Of a stretch of 64,000 nucleotides of DNA, positions 5,667-58,689 are shown piece by piece. Made by a program: the position numbers and the translations under genes. Position 1 is the first letter of the stretch; every line of letters begins with the position of its first letter. Under the pieces are notes generated by a model. The model searched no databases, was not told the DNA's origin, and was given only the letters and a program-made list of their open reading frames with translations. This DNA is from a virus: the IMG/VR virus record IMGVR_UViG_3300021170_000011, positions 35,995 to 99,994 of that record; one strand, written 5' to 3'.

Positions 5667-5881
5667 TAGTCGTCTGCCCCTCCGTGGTCGTCTTCCAAAT
5701 GCCAGTTCCACAGCATGTGCCAGGCGTCACGGCGCCGCTTGAACACCTTCCGCCACCCGCACTCACACCCGGCGATCCAGCGGTGACGACGCAGACACCA
5801 GCCGTTGCCGCACTCCTGCTTCAGGTCGGACAGGTGAACGCGGGTGACGTCGATGAACGGCCGGGGCTTAAAAGTCGCCAT
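5666..5881 (-). CDS. Cys/His-rich small protein (71 aa)
   Basis: Starts ATG 5881, overlapping the end of the kinase/phosphatase gene by 14 bases. It contains CGNGWCLRRHRW and CECGW plus a C-terminal HLEDDH, enough ligands for one zinc site. Such small proteins with a C-x-C-G-W core and a basic helix are common in actinophages and may bind nucleic acid. Specific function unknown. Confidence 0.6.
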   Translation of the reverse strand: MATFKPRPFIDVTRVHLSDLKQECGNGWCLRRHRWIAGCECGWRKVFKRRRDAWHMLWNWHLEDDHGGADD

Positions 5882-6788
5882 AGTTCACCTGCCAGCACTC
5901 CAGACCCATCCGCCGCCACAGGGCCACAACCCGGTCCCGGTCGTCCAGCACGAACCGGACGTCGTACAGGTCGCGAACGTGGGCGTCGAACAGTTCGGCC
6001 TTCACGATGTCGTCGCCGCGCCGGTCGCCCTCGGCCCGCATCCACAGCTCGTCGTACACGATGCCGTTATCGTCCAACCACCGCTCGGTGTGGGCCCGGT
6101 ATTCGGACTGACGGCCGGACAGGAGGATGATGCGGTCCCGGATCCCGCCCCAGCCGCCGCTGTTGCGGCACAGGTCGAGGATCCGCCGAACCTCCGGGTT
6201 CACCAGGTCGGTTCCGACCTGTTCGAAGTCGTAGGGGCCGCGTCCGTTGTGGATCGCCAACGTTCCGTCGATGTCGCAGATGACCGCCGGGGGCAACGCG
6301 TCGTTGCGGCGGTACGGCTCCGGCGCCACCATATCGTTCATGGGGTGGCTGGCCAGTCGCCACTTGCTGCGACGCATCCGCTCGTGCATGTCCTTGATGA
6401 CCGCCGGGCCCACGGACCGTTCCCGTGCCTGGTCGCGGTCAATGCAGGTGTCCACGGGCACGTGGGTGAAGTCGTGGATGTGGAACGTTGCCCGGCCGCC
6501 GACGAGCCGCTTGTACCGGTTCGGCAGGCGCGCGACAAGGTGGGTGTTGTCAACGATGATGTCGAATCCGTCGTTGATGGCGCCGAGGATCGCGGCGTCC
6601 TGCACCTTCAGCACAGTGTCCTCGTTGGCGCCGGGGAACCGGCGGGACCCGTCGTTCAGGTCCATCATCATGCGGATGTCGTCGAGGTTGACGCGGCGGA
6701 CACGGCCGTTGGATTCGGCAACGAGCTTGTTGGCGTAGGTGGTTTTCCCGGATGCGGGCAAACCGGTGGTCAAATGGATGGTGGACAC
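5868..6788 (-). CDS. pnkP: T4-type polynucleotide 5'-kinase / 3'-phosphatase
   Basis: The 306-residue protein matches T4 PnkP in length (301) and layout. Kinase: P-loop GLPASGKT at residues 9-16 (Lys15), with NLDDIR and VDNTH motifs following. Phosphatase (HAD/acylphosphatase type): DIDGTLA with Asp172 and Asp174, then LLSGRQSEYR and VLDDRDRVV. The enzyme removes 3'-phosphate or 2',3'-cyclic phosphate and adds 5'-phosphate at RNA breaks, preparing them for the ligase encoded at 8012-9268. Start ATG 6788 follows GGAGGAAACC. Confidence 0.95.
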   Translation of the reverse strand: MSTIHLTTGLPASGKTTYANKLVAESNGRVRRVNLDDIRMMMDLNDGSRRFPGANEDTVLKVQDAAILGAINDGFDIIVDNTHLVARLPNRYKRLVGGRATFHIHDFTHVPVDTCIDRDQARERSVGPAVIKDMHERMRRSKWRLASHPMNDMVAPEPYRRNDALPPAVICDIDGTLAIHNGRGPYDFEQVGTDLVNPEVRRILDLCRNSGGWGGIRDRIILLSGRQSEYRAHTERWLDDNGIVYDELWMRAEGDRRGDDIVKAELFDAHVRDLYDVRFVLDDRDRVVALWRRMGLECWQVNYGDF

Positions 6789-7316: not shown

Positions 7317-8012
7317 CTAGTCCTCGGTGTCGTAGGTGTAGTGGTGGTTGCGGACGCGTAGGAGCCATTGTTCGGCGGTGTCGCGGTCGGGGTGGTCGGG
7401 CAGGGGTGTCCCATCCCCATCCATGATCATTTCGACGCCGTGGATGTAGTCGTGGCCCTGGAGCGGGTGGGCGAGTATCCAGTCGGCGAGGTCCCGGACC
7501 ATGTCGGGGTCCTTCAGCCGGACCGTCAGTTGCCCGGTGGTGTACAGCTCCCGGCCCTGTTCGAGGAGCCGGATGATGTGCCGGGCGTGTTTGGCCGCGC
7601 GGCGTTCCGGGATGTCGGCGGCGAACGACCCGTTGCCGCGTGCGATCAGTTTCCCGAGCTGCTGCCGGGCGTACCCGATATAGGCGTCACGGACCTGACG
7701 GCCGCACAGGAACGCGTCCCGGATCCCGACGAGTTCGGCGCCGAGTTGGGTGATGAAGTCGTACTGGTCGAGCCACAGCAGCTCGTTCACCGACGGGTTG
7801 CCGTTCAGGGCCAGCCGCACAAACTTCCCGGCCTCATGCATGGTGCTGTCGGGGTCGTGGGTGACCATCGACTCTTGGGGTTTCGTCAGCCCGTGGAACG
7901 CGATGGTGGGGGCTGCGAACACGCCCAGCGTGTCCACGTCGGACTCGGGGGTGTCGAGGCCGTAGGCGGTTGATCCGACAATGCCCTTCAACAGGGTGTT
8001 GACGGCGGTCAC
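7317..8012 (-). CDS. Nucleotidyltransferase, YcgL/COG3541-like (pol beta superfamily)
   Basis: GTG 8012 overlaps the ligase stop (TAGTG). The 231-residue protein carries the nucleotidyltransferase core GSTAYGLDTPESDVDTLGVF near residues 12-31, with the GS and DxD metal-binding signature, and a helical C-terminal half. Proteins of this type are predicted nucleotidyltransferases; their substrates are mostly untested. Translational coupling to an Rnl1-type ligase suggests end-tailing of damaged RNA or a CCA-like repair step, which is inference. Confidence 0.8.
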   Translation of the reverse strand: MTAVNTLLKGIVGSTAYGLDTPESDVDTLGVFAAPTIAFHGLTKPQESMVTHDPDSTMHEAGKFVRLALNGNPSVNELLWLDQYDFITQLGAELVGIRDAFLCGRQVRDAYIGYARQQLGKLIARGNGSFAADIPERRAAKHARHIIRLLEQGRELYTTGQLTVRLKDPDMVRDLADWILAHPLQGHDYIHGVEMIMDGDGTPLPDHPDRDTAEQWLLRVRNHHYTYDTED

Positions 8013-9268
8013 TACGCCTCCTCGTTGGTATCGGCGCGGAACGGGTCGGTGGCGGCGGGACGCAGGGACTTCCACACGTGCGGCCCGATGTCCCGATGGT
8101 CGTATTTGATGAACATCCCGGAACGGATCACCGGGTCCGTCGCCAGCTCCATCACATGCCGGGCGAACGTCTTCCGGCGCTCCGGCCCGTACTGGCGGCC
8201 CATCTCGTCCTCGGTCTTGGTCCGGGCGACGGCGACCAGGTCCGTGATCTGCTGCGTGATCGCGTAGAACTGCCGGTCCAGATCGGCCATGACGCCGCGA
8301 ACCCACTGATCGAACTCGTCCGGGACGTCGTCGATCAGGGCGCCGATAGCGCCGCCGGGGATCGCGGACATGCGGATGGCCTCGGAGAACGTGACACCGA
8401 TGGTTTTCGACAGCTCGTGGGCGTCGATGGTGGCGAACCGGTCGGCGCCGTACGCCTGCCAGACGTCGCGGGCGTTGATGCCTGTCAACACCTTGTGGAG
8501 ACGCACATACTCCGCGAACTTGATCTTGGCGCGGATGCCGGACTGGTTGAACCGGATCACCCAGCCCTCGCTGTCCGACCCGCCGACCGGCTCACCGTTC
8601 AGGTCCTTGTTCCCGTCGGCCAACGCCATCAGCAGCGACATCGGGAACTTGTCGAACGCCACCCACTGCCGCACCGGGTACCCGATCGGTTCCCAACCGT
8701 CCGCGACCTCATGCAACGGGATCTCCTGACCGTTGACCCCGTACGCGCCGATCAGGCACAGCCCGGTCAGGTTGTCGTCGTAGCGGACCACGATCCGGTT
8801 CTCGGGATAGATGATCTCGCACAGGTACGTGATCCCCGCCTCCAGCCGGGACGTGTCGCAGCCGTCCAACCGGCGCTGCGCCCACTGTGCCTGCTCAGAC
8901 GTGAACGATCCCTTCGACGCCACGTGCCATTTGCCCTGGTACCAGAACATGATGCCCAACGACCCGTCCACCTTCTCGAAGATCGAGAAGTCTTCCTTCG
9001 GCAGCGGCGGCGCGTAGTCCTGACCGCTGTCGTGCTCGGAGACGTTGAAGAACTTCGGGAACGGCCACGCCACGACCGTCCCGGCGTCGTCGGCGATCAG
9101 GCCCCGGCAGCGCGTGGTGACGTTGTTCCAGTGCCGGTCATACTGGCAGTGCCGGGTGTACGTGTAGATGGTCAGGGGTTCGGTGGGGTGACGGCGCGTC
9201 TGGACGTATCCGGCGTCGATCTCCTCCGCGAGGGTGCCGGGCGCGAACAGGTCGGCGAGGCTGGTCAC
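8012..9268 (-). CDS. rnlA: T4 Rnl1-family RNA ligase (418 aa)
   Basis: With the GTG start at 9268 (GTGA overlap, AAGGAG upstream) the nucleophile of motif I EKVDGS falls at Lys99, the same number as in T4 RNA ligase 1. Further motifs in order: TRCRGLIAD (motif Ia-like, residues 52-60), CEIIYPENRIVV (III), EGWVIRF (IV), and KIKFAEYVRLHKV (V). A roughly 150-residue C-terminal helical domain, as in Rnl1, follows. Rnl1 enzymes seal 3'-OH/5'-P ends in single-stranded loops, classically anticodon loops cut by PrrC. Works with pnkP at 5868. Confidence 0.93.
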   Translation of the reverse strand: MTSLADLFAPGTLAEEIDAGYVQTRRHPTEPLTIYTYTRHCQYDRHWNNVTTRCRGLIADDAGTVVAWPFPKFFNVSEHDSGQDYAPPLPKEDFSIFEKVDGSLGIMFWYQGKWHVASKGSFTSEQAQWAQRRLDGCDTSRLEAGITYLCEIIYPENRIVVRYDDNLTGLCLIGAYGVNGQEIPLHEVADGWEPIGYPVRQWVAFDKFPMSLLMALADGNKDLNGEPVGGSDSEGWVIRFNQSGIRAKIKFAEYVRLHKVLTGINARDVWQAYGADRFATIDAHELSKTIGVTFSEAIRMSAIPGGAIGALIDDVPDEFDQWVRGVMADLDRQFYAITQQITDLVAVARTKTEDEMGRQYGPERRKTFARHVMELATDPVIRSGMFIKYDHRDIGPHVWKSLRPAATDPFRADTNEEA

Positions 9269-14065: not shown

Positions 14066-15243
14066 CGTCTCTTGCGAAGCTTGGGTATGTCGGGATTGCC
14101 AAGGAGGTGACTCAGGGCACGTATGTTGCCCCGTCGTTCTACATCCCGTGCACGAAGATCGATGCTGAGGATGTGTTCGTTGAGTTGCGGGACGAGTCGT
14201 ACCGCAACAACGACACCCTGTTGCAGGGCATGTACCAGGGCCCCGGTGACAGCACGTTTGCTATCGACGTCATGGCGTACCCCGACGCTATCCCGTACCT
14301 GCTGCGGGGTCTGATCGGGCCGGACACGGTGACGACCACGGGCGTGTCTACGACGTTGGCGTCTAACGCGTCGGCTGGGGCAACGTCGTTGTCGTTGACT
14401 GCTTCGGTACCCAGCAACAGCACCATCCGTATTCAGGACGCGGGCGGCGCGAATACGGAGTATGTCCAGGTCGGTACGGTTACCGGTACGGGCCCGTACA
14501 CGGCGCCGGTGACGACGCCGACGACCGGCACCCTGTACGCGCACACGGCGGCCGGTGGTTCGGTTACCAGCCAGTCCACGCACACGTTCAAGCAGAACCC
14601 TACGGCCGCCCAGACGTCGTGGTCGTTGACGAAGTTTGATGTGGCCACGAACGGGTTGGGGACGGCTACGCGCGGGTTCCCGGGTTGCAAGATCCAGGAA
14701 GTCGCGATCAAGATCGACCCGAAGGCTGTCATGACGTTCTCCGTCAAGTACGTGGGGTGGTTGTCGGCGGAGCAGACGCCGAACCCAACCCCAACGTTCT
14801 CGTCGGTGATCCCGGGCCTCGGCTGGCAGTGGACCATGACCAACGGCGGCGGCTCGTCTACGCGCGGTCTGACGTATGACCTGACGGTCAAGCGTCCGGC
14901 GGACGCTATCCACGCGTCCAACGGGTCGCAGGGGCCGCGTGAGGTCTTTCAGGGCGTGTTGGAGGCCGACGGCACGTACAAGGCGATCTTCGAGAACGAC
15001 ACGGACCTGAACCTGTACTTGCAGTACACGCAGCTCCCGGCGACGGCGACGATCACGCAGCCGGTCACGTCCGGCGGTTCTGTGATCACGCTGACGTCGT
15101 CGAAGTCGGGTTGGTACAAGGGCAAGGTGGACCTGTCCACCGTGTACGTGACGGCGGACTTCTCCCTGTCGGGTATCTACAACACGACCGACGGCGGCGC
15201 CGTGTCGGCGACGGTCACCAACTACGTGTCAACGGCGTACTAG
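14062..15243 (+). CDS. Major tail (tube) protein (393 aa)
   Basis: GTG 14062 overlaps the previous stop. Starts LAKLGYVGIAKEVTQGTYVAPSFYIP, the typical opening of siphophage tail tube proteins (a long loop with the substrate-like GTxxxP signature). Beta-rich and Thr/Ser/Gly-rich throughout. An inserted region around residues 95-170 looks like an Ig-like or decorating domain (TLASNASAGATSLSLTA). A strong terminator follows, as expected for a very highly expressed gene. Confidence 0.85.
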   Translation: MTSLAKLGYVGIAKEVTQGTYVAPSFYIPCTKIDAEDVFVELRDESYRNNDTLLQGMYQGPGDSTFAIDVMAYPDAIPYLLRGLIGPDTVTTTGVSTTLASNASAGATSLSLTASVPSNSTIRIQDAGGANTEYVQVGTVTGTGPYTAPVTTPTTGTLYAHTAAGGSVTSQSTHTFKQNPTAAQTSWSLTKFDVATNGLGTATRGFPGCKIQEVAIKIDPKAVMTFSVKYVGWLSAEQTPNPTPTFSSVIPGLGWQWTMTNGGGSSTRGLTYDLTVKRPADAIHASNGSQGPREVFQGVLEADGTYKAIFENDTDLNLYLQYTQLPATATITQPVTSGGSVITLTSSKSGWYKGKVDLSTVYVTADFSLSGIYNTTDGGAVSATVTNYVSTAY

Positions 15244-19903: not shown

Positions 19904-22732
19904 GTGACCACCCCTAACCCCAACTGGCCGACGTTGTTTGCTGAGGCGTCGTTTGCGGTGAACCCGTTCTACTCCACCGGTCAGGTTGTTTACACGGACC
20001 TGACGCCGCGTCTGTACAAGCAGTGGTCTGTGCGGCGCGGGAAGCAGTACGAGTTGGATCAGGTTCAGCCTGCCGAGTTCCGGGGCCAGTGGGTGAACAC
20101 GGACGGGTTCGTGGACCCGTCCAACACGTCGTCACCGTTTTACCCGGACGTGGTGCCGTACCGGGGCTACCGGATGCGGGCGCAGTACCCGCCGTCGGTG
20201 AACGTGCTGACCAGGGACCAGGCAACCGGCGGTGAGGGAACGCCGGTTGCCCCTGGTTCTATCCCGGCGTCGATGCAGTTCGTTACCGACGTGGGCGCCA
20301 CGTTGACGATCGCGGCATCGGCGACGGCGTGGCAGGGGTCGCAGGTCATTCAGGCGGCAGTACCGGCGTCGTCGCCGGTGCATTTCTACGCCGTTTACAT
20401 TCAACAAATCCCGGTTCAGTCGCCGTCGGGATTCTCAACGCCCACGTACACGTGGTCCACGTATCTGCGTTGCACCACGGCCAGCATCAACCCGACGGTG
20501 GCGTTGGCGTTGAAGTTCTTCGACATCAACGGCAACTTCATTGACGAGGAGGTTGGGGGGAACGTCACCCTGACCGGTAGCGCCACGGCCGGGTGGACCC
20601 GTCTCACGCTGACGCGGTCTATGTCGTTTGCTGCGGGTGCGGCGTATGTGGACGCGGCTGTGGCGTTGGAGGGAACGCCACCGGCGTCGCCGTGGACGCT
20701 ACAAATGGATGGTTCGCAGTTTGAGCAGAACACGGCGGCGTCGTCGTTCTCGGTGCCGGGTATCGGCTATCCGATTATGTCTGGCGCTATTGAGCGGTAT
20801 CCGCAGGCGTGGGATTACAACGGCACGTACGGTGTGGTGTCCCCTATCGGTGTTGACACTATGGCCCTGTTGTCGCAGACGTTGTTGACTGACGCGTTTG
20901 TCAGTGAGGTGGTGGAGACGTCACCGGCCTGGTACTACCAGTTAAACGAGGCAGGCGGCGCTACCGCCTTCGTCGAACAGGGCGGCCGGGCAGGCAACGC
21001 GGCCATCGTGACGGCCGGTACGGGGTCGTGTAGCCCCGGCAGCAGCATCACCGCTGCGACACTGCCGGGGGGGAAGTTTCTGGGCGGCTCCGGCCCTGTG
21101 GTGACGTTCAACAACGGCACCAACTTTCAGGGCTCGTTCATCAACTTCACCAACGCCCTGTCAACGATCGGTCCGGTAAACGGTAGCGGCTGGACCCGGA
21201 TGATTGCGTTCCGCACCAACTCCACCACGGTCAACACCATGGCGGCTATTACCGACGGCAGCAACTACGGGTTGAGCGGCGCCGGTACGCAGCCGCTGAC
21301 CGCTATTCAGATCCAGATCAACGGCAGTTCCGGGGCTACGGTTCAGTTCACGAGCCCCGGCGGGGGCGGCGGCATTGGTGTTACCACGTCTACCCCGGTC
21401 AACGACAACAACTGGCATTTGTTGTTCATCTCGGTGGCGGCGGACCAGTCGTCTCTGACGTTGACCGTTGACACCACCACCGCTACCTCATCCGGTGGTG
21501 TTGCGGTGTACCCGGGGCAGTATCTCAACGACTCGGTGGGGGGCGCCTATTACAGCCTCAGCCAGTCGGGTGATATCCGGGGTTGGGTCGGCGACCTCGC
21601 GCATTATGCGAGCTGGAACACTGTTCTCAGCTCGGGTACTAAAACCGCTCTCTACAATGCGTGGAGGTCTGCTGGTCAGGGCGAAACCTCGGGGGCCCGG
21701 TATTCCCGGATCCTGCGGTACGCCAACTACCTGGGCGCGCAGAACATCGATACCGGTTCCACCACCAACATGGGGCCGTGTAATGACATCAACGGGCAGG
21801 ATGCGTTGACGTCGTTGCAAAATGTCGTGGATACCGAGTACGGGCGTCACTTTGTGGATGTCAACGGAACTATCACGTTCCAATCACGGTTCCGGGCGTT
21901 CACGACCACGACGCCCCTGTGGACGTTCGGGGAGAACCAGGCGGCCGGGGAAATCCCGTATGTCAACCTGGCATTCGACTACGACCCCACCCACATCTCC
22001 AACCTGATCCAGGTGACGCAGAACACCACCAGCAACGTATACACGTCTTTTGACACGACTAGCGAGCAGAGTTTCGGCGTCCGGAACCTGACCCGCAACA
22101 ACCAGTCGGCGGACGCTACCGAAGTCCAGCAGCAGGCGTACTTCCTGGTGTCGCGGTACAAAAACCCGTACATGCGTGTGAACACGCTGACGATCGACGT
22201 GGCCGCGAACCCGGCCCTGTGGGCGTCGGTGTTGCAGTTCGAGTTGGGGCAGTACATCGCTATCAACCGCCGGTCGGTGACCGGCGCGGCCGAGATCTCA
22301 ATCAACGGGTTTATCGAACAGATCACCCACACCGGCGACGACCAGGGCAAGTGGCTGGTGGATCTTCAGATCTCGCCTGTTCCCACTACCGCGTATGCCG
22401 TGTTCACGGCCCTGAAAACGACCCTGAACACTGGCGCGTCGTCCGGGGCCAACGTCATCACCATCAACGCGTTGCCGGATGCCGCTACCAACCCGGTGCG
22501 GTCGGAACTGACCGGCGGCCAACAACTGATCATCGGGTCCGGCGCGAATCAGGAGACTGTGACAATCGCGACCGGCGGCGTGCAGAACCAGGCAGCCGGT
22601 TACACCACGGCGCAGTTGACATTGACTGCCAACCTGGCCCATAACCATGTGACTGGTGAACAGGTCATTGAGGTCAATGGGGTTTCATATGACGCGTTGG
22701 GTGTTTTCGACACGTCGTTGTTCCCGTACTAG
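19904..22732 (+). CDS. Large minor tail / tail-tip protein (942 aa)
   Basis: GTG 19904 with AAGGAGG upstream. Beta-rich protein immediately after the tape measure, where distal tail and tail-associated proteins are encoded. Residues about 340-570 look like a LamG/concanavalin-like domain (WYYQLNEAGG, TRMIAFRTNS, WHLLFISVAADQ, GWVGDLAHYASW), suggesting carbohydrate binding; the C-terminal third resembles a baseplate-hub type beta domain. A TTA leucine codon occurs at 20942-20944. Function inferred from synteny and domain-like patterns. Confidence 0.8.
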   Translation: MTTPNPNWPTLFAEASFAVNPFYSTGQVVYTDLTPRLYKQWSVRRGKQYELDQVQPAEFRGQWVNTDGFVDPSNTSSPFYPDVVPYRGYRMRAQYPPSVNVLTRDQATGGEGTPVAPGSIPASMQFVTDVGATLTIAASATAWQGSQVIQAAVPASSPVHFYAVYIQQIPVQSPSGFSTPTYTWSTYLRCTTASINPTVALALKFFDINGNFIDEEVGGNVTLTGSATAGWTRLTLTRSMSFAAGAAYVDAAVALEGTPPASPWTLQMDGSQFEQNTAASSFSVPGIGYPIMSGAIERYPQAWDYNGTYGVVSPIGVDTMALLSQTLLTDAFVSEVVETSPAWYYQLNEAGGATAFVEQGGRAGNAAIVTAGTGSCSPGSSITAATLPGGKFLGGSGPVVTFNNGTNFQGSFINFTNALSTIGPVNGSGWTRMIAFRTNSTTVNTMAAITDGSNYGLSGAGTQPLTAIQIQINGSSGATVQFTSPGGGGGIGVTTSTPVNDNNWHLLFISVAADQSSLTLTVDTTTATSSGGVAVYPGQYLNDSVGGAYYSLSQSGDIRGWVGDLAHYASWNTVLSSGTKTALYNAWRSAGQGETSGARYSRILRYANYLGAQNIDTGSTTNMGPCNDINGQDALTSLQNVVDTEYGRHFVDVNGTITFQSRFRAFTTTTPLWTFGENQAAGEIPYVNLAFDYDPTHISNLIQVTQNTTSNVYTSFDTTSEQSFGVRNLTRNNQSADATEVQQQAYFLVSRYKNPYMRVNTLTIDVAANPALWASVLQFELGQYIAINRRSVTGAAEISINGFIEQITHTGDDQGKWLVDLQISPVPTTAYAVFTALKTTLNTGASSGANVITINALPDAATNPVRSELTGGQQLIIGSGANQETVTIATGGVQNQAAGYTTAQLTLTANLAHNHVTGEQVIEVNGVSYDALGVFDTSLFPY

Positions 22733-23820: not shown

Positions 23821-24372
23821 GTGACGCGCGTTGTTCCTACTACGCCGTTTGAGACGTCCGGCAGTGTTGTTCAGTCTTCGCTGTGGAACAGCGGCCCGAA
23901 GGCGATGGGGGACTATTACCTGTCGCCGCCGATGTTCCGGGGCCACCAGTCCGCAGCGCAGGCTGTTGCCTCCAACACCTATGTGGCGATGTCGTTAGAC
24001 GTTACGGATGTTGATACCGACAACGGCCATTCTAATGTCACCAATAACACGAGGTATACGTGTCAGGTCCCGGGCTGGTATTTGGCTGAGGGGTATGTGG
24101 CGTTGGTCAACAACACCGGCGCGCAGTCAATCCTGTTCGTGATGCTGGCGTTGAACAGCACGGGGGGCACCCCCAACACGGTGCCGGGTCTGCAACAGCG
24201 GCTCATCAAGGGCGCTAACAGCTTCACCGCCGCGTCCGGGTCCGGCATGTTGAAGATGGCGGCAGGCGACTATCTAGAAGTGTGGACGTGGCAGGACTCC
24301 GGTTCCAGCATCAACACCGCCCCCAATACCGACCTGTGCCCAGCGCTGAACCTGCTGTGGGTGCATTCCTGA
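23821..24372 (+). CDS. Tail fibre/receptor-binding paralog 3 (183 aa)
   Basis: GTG 23821 with GGAGG upstream. Shares RVVPTTPFETSGSVVQSSLW, TCQVPGWYLAEGYVALV and LNLLWVHS with the two upstream paralogs. Carries a TTA leucine codon at 23995-23997, rare in this high-GC genome. Confidence 0.75.
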   Translation: MTRVVPTTPFETSGSVVQSSLWNSGPKAMGDYYLSPPMFRGHQSAAQAVASNTYVAMSLDVTDVDTDNGHSNVTNNTRYTCQVPGWYLAEGYVALVNNTGAQSILFVMLALNSTGGTPNTVPGLQQRLIKGANSFTAASGSGMLKMAAGDYLEVWTWQDSGSSINTAPNTDLCPALNLLWVHS

Positions 24373-33635: not shown

Positions 33636-34074
33636 GGCGTCTTCCCTTCAATTGGAGAACGAGCGTGCCGTTCCGGAATGCCTCGCCGACCAGGTGTGTA
33701 CGGTTGACGGTTTTAGTTTTCTCCAGCATGCGACGCACGTGGGTCTTGACGGTGTCCTCGGCCACGCCGAGACGGACAGCGATTTCCTCGTTTTCCAGAC
33801 CGGTCGCTATCAACAGGAGAACCTGCATTTGCCGCCGGGTCAGCGGGAACGGCGACGGCGCCAAATCCGGTTTGAACACGCCACGCTTATACATCAGCGT
33901 CACCGCGTATGTGATTCCCAGGTTCTTTGAACCGAGTTTCTTGGTGAGGCGGGCGCGGTGGGTACGGACGGTCGCGAATGCCAGCCCCGTGTTCTCGGCG
34001 GTTTCCCCGATGCCCATTCCGAGGGCCGCGTATTCGATGATCTGGATTTCGCGGGCAGTCAGTTCCGGATTCAT
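33628..34074 (-). CDS. Regulator with two tandem LuxR-type HTH units (148 aa)
   Basis: Unit 1 (residues about 3-67): ELTAREIQIIEYAALGMGIG, then GLAFATVRTHRARLTKKLG. Unit 2 (about 78-142): PLTRRQMQVLLLIATGLENE, then GVAEDTVKTHVRRMLEKTK and NRTHLVGEAFRNGTLVL. Each is a complete GerE-type tetrahelical HTH; no sensor, receiver or ATPase domain is present. The start overlaps the stop of the four-unit regulator (34074), so the pair is co-translated. Confidence 0.88.
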   Translation of the reverse strand: MNPELTAREIQIIEYAALGMGIGETAENTGLAFATVRTHRARLTKKLGSKNLGITYAVTLMYKRGVFKPDLAPSPFPLTRRQMQVLLLIATGLENEEIAVRLGVAEDTVKTHVRRMLEKTKTVNRTHLVGEAFRNGTLVLQLKGRRRA

Positions 34075-34982
34075 TATGGCTTCCTACGGAGAACGAGGTT
34101 GCCGGTCTGGAACGACTGGTTAACCAGGTGGGCCCGGTTCTTAGCCCGCAGCGTCCGGCACGTCACCGCCACGCACGTCTTCACCGACGACTCGGTCTCG
34201 CCGACACGGGCGGCGGTAGACGCGACCGTGTGGCCCCTGGCGATGTGTTCGATGATGTGGATGGTGCGGCGGTCCAGCAGCGGCGTGGGCGGCCCTACGC
34301 GGTTGACGGTGAGGTACCCGTATTTGTAGGCGGCGGCGACGGCGTGGGCGGTGGTGCGGGTGTCGAACTTGGCGTTGATGTCGGAGATGACGCGCATGAC
34401 CTTGCCGTGGGACATGTTCATCTCGGCGCCGATTTGGTCCCGGGCCTTCCCCGACGCCACAGCCCGGATAACCGCGTACTCGATGTTCGTCAACTGGTTC
34501 ATGTGCGGCTGCGGTTGGGGGGCTAGGGGCGTACCGTCGGGGGTGTACGGCATCAGCCGGGACATGTACGCCAGGTAGGTGAGGTGGGTGCGGTTGCGGG
34601 CCGCCCACAGCTTCAGCAGCGACCCGATTTTGCATTTGACGCTGTGTAGGCTGCGGCCGAGGTCTTCGGCGATTTCCTCGTTTCGCATGCCCTTTGACAC
34701 CTTCTCCAGCACGTCCATGCCGTAGGCGTCCATGACGGGGACCACGCACGGGTCCTCGGATAGGGGTTGCAGGATCCCCATCTCGAAGGCTTTCACCACC
34801 AACGCCGCGTCGTTGTCGTTGGGGACGTCTAGCGCGCGGCCCAGCCGGGTCCGGTGTGTTTTGACGGTGTTTATGGAGATGAACAGTTTGTTTGCAATCT
34901 CCTGTTTCGTCATTCCCTCGCCGGTCATGCACATGATCTGCAAGAGCCGCAGCGACATTGGTGGTGAGGCCTTCTTGGACAC
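34074..34982 (-). CDS. Regulator with four tandem LuxR-type HTH units (302 aa)
   Basis: GTG 34982 with AAGGACT. Four GerE-like units follow each other: residues about 9-71 (MTKQEIANKLFISINTVKTH), 82-145 (MRNEEIAEDLGRSLHSVKCK), 160-225 (ARDQIGAEMNMSHGKVMRVI) and 235-298 (VASTAARVGETESSVKT). The last ends NRAHLVNQSFQTGNLVL, close to the end of the neighbouring two-unit protein. No sensory domain. A bead-like array of DNA-binding units could bridge several operator half-sites. Confidence 0.88.
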   Translation of the reverse strand: MSKKASPPMSLRLLQIMCMTGEGMTKQEIANKLFISINTVKTHRTRLGRALDVPNDNDAALVVKAFEMGILQPLSEDPCVVPVMDAYGMDVLEKVSKGMRNEEIAEDLGRSLHSVKCKIGSLLKLWAARNRTHLTYLAYMSRLMPYTPDGTPLAPQPQPHMNQLTNIEYAVIRAVASGKARDQIGAEMNMSHGKVMRVISDINAKFDTRTTAHAVAAAYKYGYLTVNRVGPPTPLLDRRTIHIIEHIARGHTVASTAARVGETESSVKTCVAVTCRTLRAKNRAHLVNQSFQTGNLVLRRKP

Positions 34983-40679: not shown

Positions 40680-41579
40680 TCACACTGGTTTTCTTTGCGG
40701 CGGTGATGTAAACCGCAACTGCCAGCCACGCGACGTCGGCGACCAGGACAAGTACTTGTCCCCAGCCTGAACAACAACATCCGTGTCATCCGGCCGCAAA
40801 CCATCAAGGACACCCTTCAGGCGCACTTCCTTCGCCTTCAAATCCTTGATCTGTTTCCGTGTCGCAAACAGGTCAGCCGCCGTATCCCCGGCGTCCGCGC
40901 CCTCCGCCAACAACACAGACCGCCGGTCACGGTCAGGGACGCCGCCAGACCAGCACAGCCCGCCGTCGGGGCCGCCGAACGGGCAGCCCTGACACCACGC
41001 GCTGTCGGGTTCGTAGTCACGCGGGACCAGGTCGAACGGCACTGACCGGACGTCGTCCAGCCACTCCAGCGCGTCCTTGATGTCGCGCATGCTGAAGTAC
41101 TGCTCGTACTGCCATTCCTCGCCGGTGTCCCGGCACAGGTAGTCGATCCGGAACGTCTCCACCGGTACCGGCGGGTCCTGCGTCAGCAGGGCCGCGCAGT
41201 AGCCGGAGCATTGCCACAGGTGCGCGAACGGCGGACCGTGCAGCTTAATCGACTCCAGCCACCGGGACGTGGTGGTTTTGGTGTCCACGACCCGGCGGTG
41301 TTCCGGTTCGTACCGGTCGAAGTGGCCTTTGATCCCGGCGTACTCGACTTCCCATTCGGCGGGCATGCCCAGTGCGTCAAGGACGATCTTCAACTGTTCG
41401 TGGACGGCGGTCCCGATCATGGCGGTAACCGACGACATGCGGTTGACAGGCTCGTACCCGTCGATCTTGTAGCGGGTGCGGCGGCGGCAGCCGCCGATGT
41501 CGGACCAGCCAATCTCACGCTGCGCGGAGCGTGCGCGGAGCTGGTCCGCCAGCAGCAGCAGGGCGGATGTAGAGGTCAC
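40680..41579 (-). CDS. Cas4/RecB-like PD-(D/E)XK nuclease (299 aa)
   Basis: GTG 41579 overlaps the upstream stop (GTGA). Nuclease core: AMIGTAVHEQLKIVLDALG (motif I His), GHFDRYEPEHRRVVDTKTTT (D ... DxK), WQCSGYCAALL (Q-Y motif) and a C-terminal cysteine set CQGCPFGGPDGGLC that, with an N-terminal Cys, could hold an Fe-S cluster as in Cas4/AddB-like enzymes. With RecT two genes upstream it likely supplies 5'-end resection for phage recombination. Confidence 0.85.
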   Translation of the reverse strand: MTSTSALLLLADQLRARSAQREIGWSDIGGCRRRTRYKIDGYEPVNRMSSVTAMIGTAVHEQLKIVLDALGMPAEWEVEYAGIKGHFDRYEPEHRRVVDTKTTTSRWLESIKLHGPPFAHLWQCSGYCAALLTQDPPVPVETFRIDYLCRDTGEEWQYEQYFSMRDIKDALEWLDDVRSVPFDLVPRDYEPDSAWCQGCPFGGPDGGLCWSGGVPDRDRRSVLLAEGADAGDTAADLFATRKQIKDLKAKEVRLKGVLDGLRPDDTDVVVQAGDKYLSWSPTSRGWQLRFTSPPQRKPV

Positions 41580-42019
41580 GCAGCCACCTGATTCCGCAGC
41601 TCTTTGACTCGTTTCTGGTACGCACGTTGATACGCGTTGTAACACGTGCGGCAACGCCGTTCACCGTTCAACAGGTGACCTTCTTTGCACGTTGTGCGGT
41701 CACCGAACTTACGGCGGATATTCTCTGCGTGGGTCACGGCCTCTAGGTGGTCAGGGTTGACACAATTGCGAACCCGGCAGAGATGATCAATTTCCAACCC
41801 GTCAGGAATTAACCCTTTGGATCGCTCGTAAGACCACCGGTGCGCGTATACCGACCGGTAGCTACCATCCGTCATGCGCTGGTTAAACCTGCCGTACCCA
41901 AGGTCTTGGATCTCACCATTCCACGCATGGCATGGTGTTGAGAACCCGTTATCTTCCGGCAGCCACTTGGCGTCAAACCGTTGATCGTTTAGCGCGGCCC
42001 GTTTAGGACGCTCAATCAC
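41576..42019 (-). CDS. HNH homing-type endonuclease (147 aa)
   Basis: HNH core GLEIDHLCRVRNCVNPDHLE with flanking ENIRR and a C-terminal zinc knuckle (CKEGHLLNGERRCRTC). Lower GC than neighbours and a TTA codon at 41810-41812, suggesting recent acquisition. It interrupts the recombination gene cluster between the MazG-like and nuclease genes, typical behaviour of free-standing homing endonucleases. Start GTG 42019 overlaps the upstream end by 8 bases. Confidence 0.9.
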   Translation of the reverse strand: MIERPKRAALNDQRFDAKWLPEDNGFSTPCHAWNGEIQDLGYGRFNQRMTDGSYRSVYAHRWSYERSKGLIPDGLEIDHLCRVRNCVNPDHLEAVTHAENIRRKFGDRTTCKEGHLLNGERRCRTCYNAYQRAYQKRVKELRNQVAA

Positions 42020-56509: not shown

Positions 56510-56620
56510 GTGTTTCCTCCGGTCGTTGATGTGTGGGACACGCGCGGCAGCCACCTACGCTGCTGGAACAGCGGAACCCGTGGGACAAGCAGAACCCCGG
56601 GATCACTGCCGCGCGTGCCG

Positions 56621-56693
56621 TGCCCCCAGCCGGATTCGAACCGGCATCTCGACGGTTTTAAGCCGTCAGCCTCTACCGTTGGGCTATGGGGGC
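56621..56693 (-). tRNA. tRNA with anticodon UAA (Leu codon UUA) but short variable arm
   Basis: Complete cloverleaf: acceptor 7 bp (GCCCCCA/TGGGGGC), D arm, anticodon stem GACGG/CCGTC with loop CTTAAAA (anticodon UAA), 5-nt variable region, T stem GCCGG with TTCGAAT loop, discriminator A. Canonical leucine tRNAs have a long variable arm, which this lacks, so charging identity is uncertain. CCA is not encoded. Confidence 0.85.
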
Positions 56694-57338: not shown

Positions 57339-57375
57339 GTCGTCCTCCGGTCTCGGCCCCCGGTTAGGGCCGCTG

Positions 57376-57448
57376 TGCTTCCGACGGGATTCGAACCCGC
57401 GTCTTCCCGGTAGGTAACCCGGTCCTCTGTCCACTGAGGTACGGAAGC
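57376..57448 (-). tRNA. tRNA with irregular anticodon arm; anticodon uncertain
   Basis: Acceptor GCTTCCG/CGGAAGC, D stem CCTC/GAGG, T stem GCGGG with TTCGAAT loop, discriminator A. The anticodon arm reads CCGGG TTACCTA CCGGG: a 7-nt loop needs a G-G mismatch (anticodon ACC, Gly), while a perfect CCGG/CCGG stem leaves an 8-nt loop GTTACCTA. Identity cannot be fixed by eye. Confidence 0.75.
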
Positions 57449-57983: not shown

Positions 57984-57986
57984 CGG

Positions 57987-58060
57987 TACCGCTAGCAGGG
58001 CTCGAACCCGCGACCTAGCCATTTATAAAGTGGCTGCTCTACCAACTGAGCTATAGCGGC
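57987..58060 (-). tRNA. tRNA-Ile-like, anticodon UAU (reads AUA)
   Basis: Acceptor GCCGCTA/TAGCGGT (first pair G-U), D arm GCTC...GAGC with AGTTGGTA loop, anticodon stem GCCAC/ATGGC (one C-A mismatch next to the loop), loop TTTATAA with anticodon TAT, T stem GCGGG/CCTGC with TTCGAGC loop. AUA is a rare codon in such a GC-rich genome. Confidence 0.85.
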
Positions 58061-58590: not shown

Positions 58591-58622
58591 ATATCGCCTC
58601 CTCACATCGGGTGGTGCTGCGC

Positions 58623-58689
58623 TGTGCCGCCGGGATTCGAACCCGGGTCGCCCCCGTCGGGGCCGTGTAGCCGTCACACGCTCGGCACA
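58623..58689 (-). pseudogene. tRNA-like element with collapsed anticodon arm (67 nt)
   Basis: Acceptor TGTGCCG/CGGCACA pairs perfectly and the T arm CCGGG-TTCGAAT-CCCGG is intact, with a D-arm-like CGTGT/ACACG. The anticodon arm is replaced by a GC hairpin (GCCCC / GGGGC) with a 4-nt loop and there is no variable region, so it cannot decode. It is either a degenerate tRNA or a tRNA-shaped regulatory RNA. Confidence 0.55.

What the first reader, a model, noticed from the sequence alone, without database searches (positions are those of the whole stretch)
56621..56693. tRNA with anticodon UAA and a short variable arm, together with TTA codons in tail genes
The cloverleaf is complete but is class I, whereas leucine tRNAs are class II. 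TTA codons occur in late genes at 20942 and 23995 and in the HNH gene at 41810. In Streptomyces TTA translation depends on the developmentally controlled bldA tRNA; a phage UUA reader would free late genes from that control. Alternatively it may be charged with another amino acid or act as a decoy for anticodon nucleases.
Basis: partly seen in the sequence, partly recalled or inferred. Interest (0 to 1): 0.65.

Follow-up and report, generated by a model that had tools for sequence, protein, structure and literature searches.

The report
Phage leucine tRNA lacking long arm
The odd-looking phage tRNA is a leucine tRNA of a short-armed form that many actinobacteria carry as their own chromosomal UUA-reading tRNA; the phage uses that short-armed form for all four of its leucine tRNAs, inside a nearly complete tRNA set, which contradicts the textbook rule that cellular leucine tRNAs always have a long arm.

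Summary
Window 56621-56693(-) is a complete tRNA with anticodon UAA and a 5-nt variable loop, and the three cited TTA codons are in frame. The interpretation mostly fails. The window is part of a 100-kb phage record with 37 tRNAs for all 20 amino acids. All four of its tRNA-Leu (UAA, CAA, CAG, GAG) are class I; its Ser and Tyr tRNAs are class II. All four carry the known E. coli leucine determinants, and in an anticodon-blind viral sample their D-arm occurs almost only with Leu anticodons, so charging with another amino acid is unlikely. Class I tRNA-Leu(UAA) is also a normal single-copy chromosomal tRNA in many Actinomycetota: in 296 genomes it never coexists with a class II UAA tRNA (0 shared, 11.3 expected). 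In 54 such genomes class I is confined to UAA; phages put it on every leucine anticodon. TTA is 8 of 1904 leucine codons, not enriched in structural genes, and the nearest relative shows no UAA tRNA, so the bldA-bypass idea has no support. Best reading: an ordinary UUA/UUG reader in a self-sufficient tRNA set with tRNA-repair genes. A 2023 review says tRNA-Leu has a long arm everywhere except animal mitochondria.

The parts
56621..56693 (-). class I tRNA-Leu(UAA): D-arm GCCCAACGGUAGAGGC, variable loop GAGAU, A73, no encoded CCA
   Evidence: ARAGORN; Rfam; fold; identity elements
57375..57448 (-). tRNA called Gly(acc) by ARAGORN; it has A73 and folds with an 8-nt anticodon loop, and its relative in the sister phage is a tRNA-Val(CAC), so a Val-type tRNA is more likely
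57985..58060 (-). tRNA-Ile(UAU), reader of the rare codon AUA; with the UAA tRNA it fills a gap of the main tRNA array
58622..58689 (-). tRNA-like sequence whose anticodon arm is closed by a 4-nt loop, so it has no anticodon loop
5868..6788 (-). polynucleotide kinase-phosphatase with kinase and PNKP phosphatase domains (T4 Pnkp-like tRNA repair)
   Evidence: Pfam PF25109 1.6e-49, AAA_33 1.1e-14
8012..9268 (-). RNA ligase of the T4 Rnl1 family, the partner of Pnkp in tRNA repair
   Evidence: Pfam PF09511 3.3e-16
20942..20944 (+). in-frame TTA codon in the 942-aa gene of the tail region (19904-22732)
   Evidence: gene family PHROG 5313, unknown function
23995..23997 (+). in-frame TTA codon in the 183-aa gene (23821-24372)
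41810..41812 (-). in-frame TTA codon in the HNH endonuclease gene (41576-42019)

Best explanation
It is a true leucine tRNA of the class I type that many Actinomycetota use as their tRNA-Leu(UAA). It was probably acquired from such a host and is charged by the host LeuRS, which in bacteria reads A73 and the D/T-loop core rather than the long arm or the anticodon. Because the anticodon is not read for charging, the same short-armed body could be spread over the CAA, CAG and GAG leucine anticodons by duplication and anticodon change. It reads UUA (rare) and probably UUG (23% of Leu codons) as one of 37 tRNAs for all 20 amino acids. With the phage's Pnkp and RNA ligases it keeps translation going when host tRNAs are cut or run down. 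Shown: structure, leucine identity elements, link of the D-arm to leucine anticodons, chromosomal class I UAA genes, absence of a second UAA tRNA by pattern, presence of repair genes. Inferred: charging, acquisition from a host, duplication history, wobble reading, role in infection.
For: Four of four phage tRNA-Leu are class I and carry A14, A15-U48, GG, A20a and A73; 4 of 28 of its other class I tRNAs do. In a viral scan with no anticodon in the pattern, all 69 tRNAs with this D-arm and a clean call carry Leu anticodons from both Leu codon boxes (UAG 32, CAA 22, AAG 5, CAG 5, GAG 4, UAA 1), and 574 of 578 non-Leu tRNAs lack it. Position 48 and A73 were not in the pattern, yet 236 of 237 viral class I Leu tRNAs have A73 and 226 have A15-U48. 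Same class I UAA tRNA in at least 119 bacterial contigs, mostly Actinomycetota. 54 of 296 actinomycete genomes have class I UAA and 62 have class II UAA; none has both (11.3 expected, hypergeometric p = 7e-7). In the 54, every class I match is UAA and class II matches have only CAG, GAG, CAA or UAG. E. coli LeuRS identity rests on A73, A15-U48, G18G19 and A20a, and variants without the long arm stay active (PMC9976931). Closest chromosomal tRNA: Dietzia, acceptor stem and anticodon arm identical. Repair genes.
Against: No aminoacylation or expression data. LeuRS evidence is from E. coli, not actinobacteria. Some non-Leu class I tRNAs also carry the whole determinant set (63 of 870 viral, 4 of 28 here), so those bases alone do not prove leucine; the D-arm link is the stronger argument. 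A14 and A15 were part of the search motif for the motif-selected tRNAs. The defence and repair role rests on gene content only. The patterns are strict and miss some tRNAs.
Confidence: 0.75

Rival explanations
1. Developmental bypass: the tRNA lets TTA-containing late genes be translated in a Streptomyces host in which bldA is switched off.
For: TTA codons are in frame in two tail-region genes; the anticodon fits; some tRNA-repair and Ro-like relatives are in Streptomyces phages.
Against: TTA is 8 of 1904 Leu codons and 3 of 8 lie in the structural block, as expected by chance (p = 0.55). The nearest relative, with 26 tRNA matches, shows no UAA tRNA. Host genus unknown; the best capsid match in a named host is an Amycolatopsis phage-like plasmid (51%), and a sequenced Amycolatopsis carries class I UAA itself. 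The tRNA is one of 37, not a lone UUA reader.
Confidence: 0.05
2. Codon supply: the tRNA mainly supplements UUG/UUA decoding during phage protein synthesis, with no link to tRNA damage.
For: UUG is 23% of leucine codons (438 of 1904), and a UAA anticodon would be expected to wobble on UUG.
Against: The phage also has a CAA tRNA for UUG, and TTA is the rarest codon. The tRNA set covers all amino acids, common and rare codons alike.
Confidence: 0.25
3. The short arm itself is selected: losing the long arm hides leucine tRNAs from host enzymes that recognise class II tRNAs.
For: All phage Leu isoacceptors are class I whereas 54 actinobacterial genomes keep class II for CAG, GAG, CAA and UAG. Enzymes that depend on a long variable arm exist, e.g. 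MenT3 on tRNA-Ser in M. tuberculosis (PMC11541572).
Against: The phage's four Ser and one Tyr tRNAs keep the long arm. MenT3 itself disfavours tRNA-Leu. No such host enzyme acting on tRNA-Leu is shown here.
Confidence: 0.1
4. The tRNA is charged with an amino acid other than leucine and recodes UUA, or is an uncharged decoy for anticodon nucleases.
For: Class I body; UUA is so rare that recoding would cost little.
Against: Leucine determinants all present and D-arm tied to leucine anticodons; anticodon arm identical to a chromosomal tRNA-Leu(UAA).
Confidence: 0.04

Closest known systems
Chromosomal class I tRNA-Leu(UAA) of Actinomycetota (Dietzia, Mycobacterium, Gordonia, Nocardia, Corynebacterium, Microbacterium and others)
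   Same: Same D-arm, short variable loop, A15-U48 and A73; acceptor stem and anticodon arm identical to the Dietzia gene
   Different: In those genomes only the UAA isoacceptor is class I; in the phage all four tRNA-Leu are
tRNA-Leu genes of cultured actinophages (mycobacteriophages Kykar and BeanWater, Streptomyces phages Wofford, Peebs, Stella, Alone3)
   Same: Class I bodies with leucine anticodons UAA, UAG, CAA, CAG or GAG, annotated as tRNA-Leu
   Different: Kykar's UAA tRNA is 83% identical and the others less; those read in Streptomyces phages were UAG or CAA, not UAA
Streptomyces bldA tRNA-Leu(UAA)
   Same: Same anticodon and codon
   Different: bldA-like genes are class II with a GGAAUGCAGACAC D-arm (naming as bldA from memory)
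T4-type tRNA repair (Pnkp plus Rnl1) and phage tRNAs countering tRNA-depleting defences (PMC10264068)
   Same: Pnkp and Rnl1-family genes and many tRNAs in one phage
   Different: That paper stresses anticodon-loop mutations; this tRNA's loop equals the chromosomal one

Membership tests
tRNA (RF00005) | Cloverleaf matching the tRNA covariance model above its gathering score | tested here: met
   60.9 bits against 29
tRNA-Leu (bacterial leucine identity) | A73, A14, A15-U48, G18G19, A20a | tested here: met
   determinants from PMC9976931
tRNA-Leu (bacterial leucine identity) | Leucine anticodon, in a body shared by other leucine anticodons and not by other amino acids | tested here: met
   69 of 69 clean calls Leu; 574 of 578 non-Leu tRNAs lack the D-arm
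tRNA-Leu (bacterial leucine identity) | Charged with leucine by LeuRS | not testable with these tools
   needs an aminoacylation assay
Class II tRNA-Leu | Variable arm of 10 or more nucleotides | tested here: not met
   variable loop GAGAU, 5 nt
Actinobacterial class I tRNA-Leu(UAA) | D-arm GCCCAA..GG.AGAGGC, UAA anticodon, variable loop of 3-6 nt | tested here: met
   same pattern matched in at least 119 bacterial contigs, closest Dietzia
bldA-type developmental tRNA | Class II UAA tRNA as in Streptomyces bldA | tested here: not met
   class I body against class II bldA-like genes
bldA-type developmental tRNA | TTA codons reserved for a regulated set of genes, here late structural genes | tested here: not met
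   3 of 8 TTA in the structural block, p = 0.55

The most novel reading that the evidence does not exclude
Actinophages have replaced the class II body of all their leucine tRNAs by the class I body because a host defence or toxin attacks class II leucine tRNAs by their long arm, so the short arm is a counter-defence.
Probability: 0.1. Interest if true: 0.75.

Novelty: new variant of a known kind. Interest (0 to 1): 0.45.

Why it matters
[quoted passage not shown] Here many actinobacterial chromosomes have a short-armed tRNA-Leu(UAA) as the only UAA tRNA that the patterns find, and phages have this body on all leucine anticodons. That is a ready natural test of what bacterial LeuRS needs, and it bears on tRNA annotation, on toxins that select tRNAs by their variable arm, and on orthogonal tRNA design. 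For the finding as given, it turns an apparent oddity of one phage into a normal form of the phylum.

Tried and rejected
Gaia tRNA-Leu(CAA), which complements a disrupted host gene (PMC10865867), as genetic proof that a class I phage tRNA-Leu works: it is class II, 84 nt. Host by DNA match: no near match in phages. Host by protein: capsid hits only Leptospira phages weakly and one Amycolatopsis plasmid at 51%; the 942-aa tail-region protein has no hit. Streptomyces host on account of Ro-like and PNK relatives: these also match Gordonia, Arthrobacter and Mycobacterium phages, so they do not decide. A phage-encoded aminoacyl-tRNA synthetase was not searched for directly. Chromosomal synteny of the class I UAA gene: an upstream gene is conserved at the same distance in three Mycobacterium/Mycolicibacterium loci only. 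Paper searches for an earlier description of class I tRNA-Leu in actinobacteria or phages found none, which is weak evidence as most subscription papers are not held.

Full report
Observation. The tRNA is real and as described, on the minus strand: ARAGORN tRNA-Leu(taa) 56620-56693, Rfam 60.9 bits, full cloverleaf with z = -3.2. The variable loop is GAGAU, 5 nt. TTA codons at 20942, 23995 and 41812-41810 are in frame.

Setting. The window is bases 35995-99994 of a 99,994-base virus record with 36 Rfam tRNA matches. ARAGORN finds 34 tRNAs upstream of the window and three in it, 37 in all, covering all 20 amino acids. The UAA and UAU(Ile) tRNAs of the window fill gaps of the main array, which has no UUA or AUA reader. 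The record also holds a T4-type polynucleotide kinase-phosphatase and an Rnl1-family RNA ligase (window 5868-6788 and 8012-9268), and a second RNA ligase and a Ro/TROVE protein upstream. Pnkp plus Rnl1 is the T4 kit for mending tRNAs cut by anticodon nucleases (established knowledge).

All leucine tRNAs are class I. The phage's UAA, CAA, CAG and GAG tRNAs are 74-76 nt as called by ARAGORN with 5-nt variable loops, whereas its four Ser tRNAs and its Tyr tRNA have long arms. Cultured actinophages are alike: every tRNA-Leu read in Wofford, Peebs, Stella, Kykar, BeanWater and Alone3 is 74-76 nt. Mycobacteriophage Gaia is an exception, with a class II CAA tRNA.

Leucine identity. The 2023 identity review (PMC9976931) lists A73, the A15-U48 pair, G18G19 and A20a for E. 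coli tRNA-Leu, and reports that neither sequence nor folding of the long arm matters and that variants lacking it stay active. All four phage tRNA-Leu have A14, A15-U48, GG, A20a and A73; 4 of 28 other class I tRNAs of the phage do. A viral scan for the D-arm and T-arm with no anticodon specified gave 69 clean anticodon calls in newly fetched loci, all leucine and from both leucine codon boxes, plus 4 ambiguous; 574 of 578 non-Leu tRNAs lack the motif. Only leucine joins the UUR and CUN boxes, so the shared body marks leucine. Caveat: A14 and A15 lie inside the search motif; position 48 and A73 do not (236 of 237 viral class I Leu have A73, 226 have A15-U48).

Not peculiar to phages. In 296 evenly drawn actinomycete genomes, 54 have it, normally once; 62 have a class II UAA tRNA, including bldA-like ones in 6-10 Mb genomes; none has both, against 11.3 expected (p = 7e-7). 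The remaining genomes match neither strict pattern, so these are not frequencies. In the 54, all class I matches are UAA and the class II matches are CAG, GAG, CAA or UAG. So the class I UAA gene looks like the sole UUA reader in those bacteria, and the spread of the class I body to other leucine anticodons is a feature of phages.

Origin. The closest chromosomal tRNA found is from Dietzia, with identical acceptor stem and identical positions 27-43. Since bacterial LeuRS does not need the anticodon, duplication with anticodon change is the simplest route to CAA, CAG and GAG versions (inference).

TTA and bldA. TTA is 8 of 1904 Leu codons in my gene calls (9 with the HNH gene, which they missed), the rarest codon, and 1.8% of UUR against 5.7% for CTA in CTR. 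Three of 8 lie in the structural block, which holds 645 of the Leu codons (p = 0.55). The gene model penalises rare codons, so a few TTA may be missed. The nearest relative (88% capsid identity, 102,929 bases, 26 tRNA matches) shows class I Leu(UAG) and Leu(CAA) and no UAA tRNA in the stretches read. The host is probably an actinomycete but its genus is unknown. Nothing supports release from bldA control.

Verdict. An ordinary leucine tRNA of the actinobacterial class I type, most likely a UUA/UUG reader in a self-sufficient tRNA set with repair genes. What is worth following is that class I tRNA-Leu exists across actinobacterial chromosomes and phages, contrary to the reviewed rule. My paper searches found no earlier description, but tRNA databases must contain these genes and most subscription papers are not held, so priority is not claimed.

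Noticed in passing
window 57375-57448 (-): ARAGORN's tRNA-Gly(ACC) has A73 (viral Gly tRNAs mostly have U73), folds with an 8-nt anticodon loop GUUACCUA, and is homologous to a tRNA-Val(CAC) of the sister phage; it may be a Val-type tRNA with an expanded loop, possibly a frameshifting tRNA.
   Followed up: partly
window 58622-58689 (-): A tRNA-like sequence (Rfam 31.3 bits) with good acceptor and T arms whose anticodon arm is a closed GCCCC-GACG-GGGGC hairpin without an anticodon loop; ARAGORN does not call it.
   Followed up: partly
L009:2535-4151: Ro60-like TROVE protein beside the tRNA array, as in several large actinophages (40-44% identity to Streptomyces and Gordonia phage proteins); no Y RNA was found by Rfam at gathering thresholds.
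   Followed up: partly
L009:5876-5952 and 14266-14341: Both tRNA-Met(CAU) have a C1-U72 mismatch as in initiator tRNAs, so the phage seems to carry two initiators and no plain elongator Met tRNA.
   Followed up: no
window 34074-34958 (-): A 294-aa protein with two GerE/LuxR-type helix-turn-helix stretches and further HTH matches.
   Followed up: no
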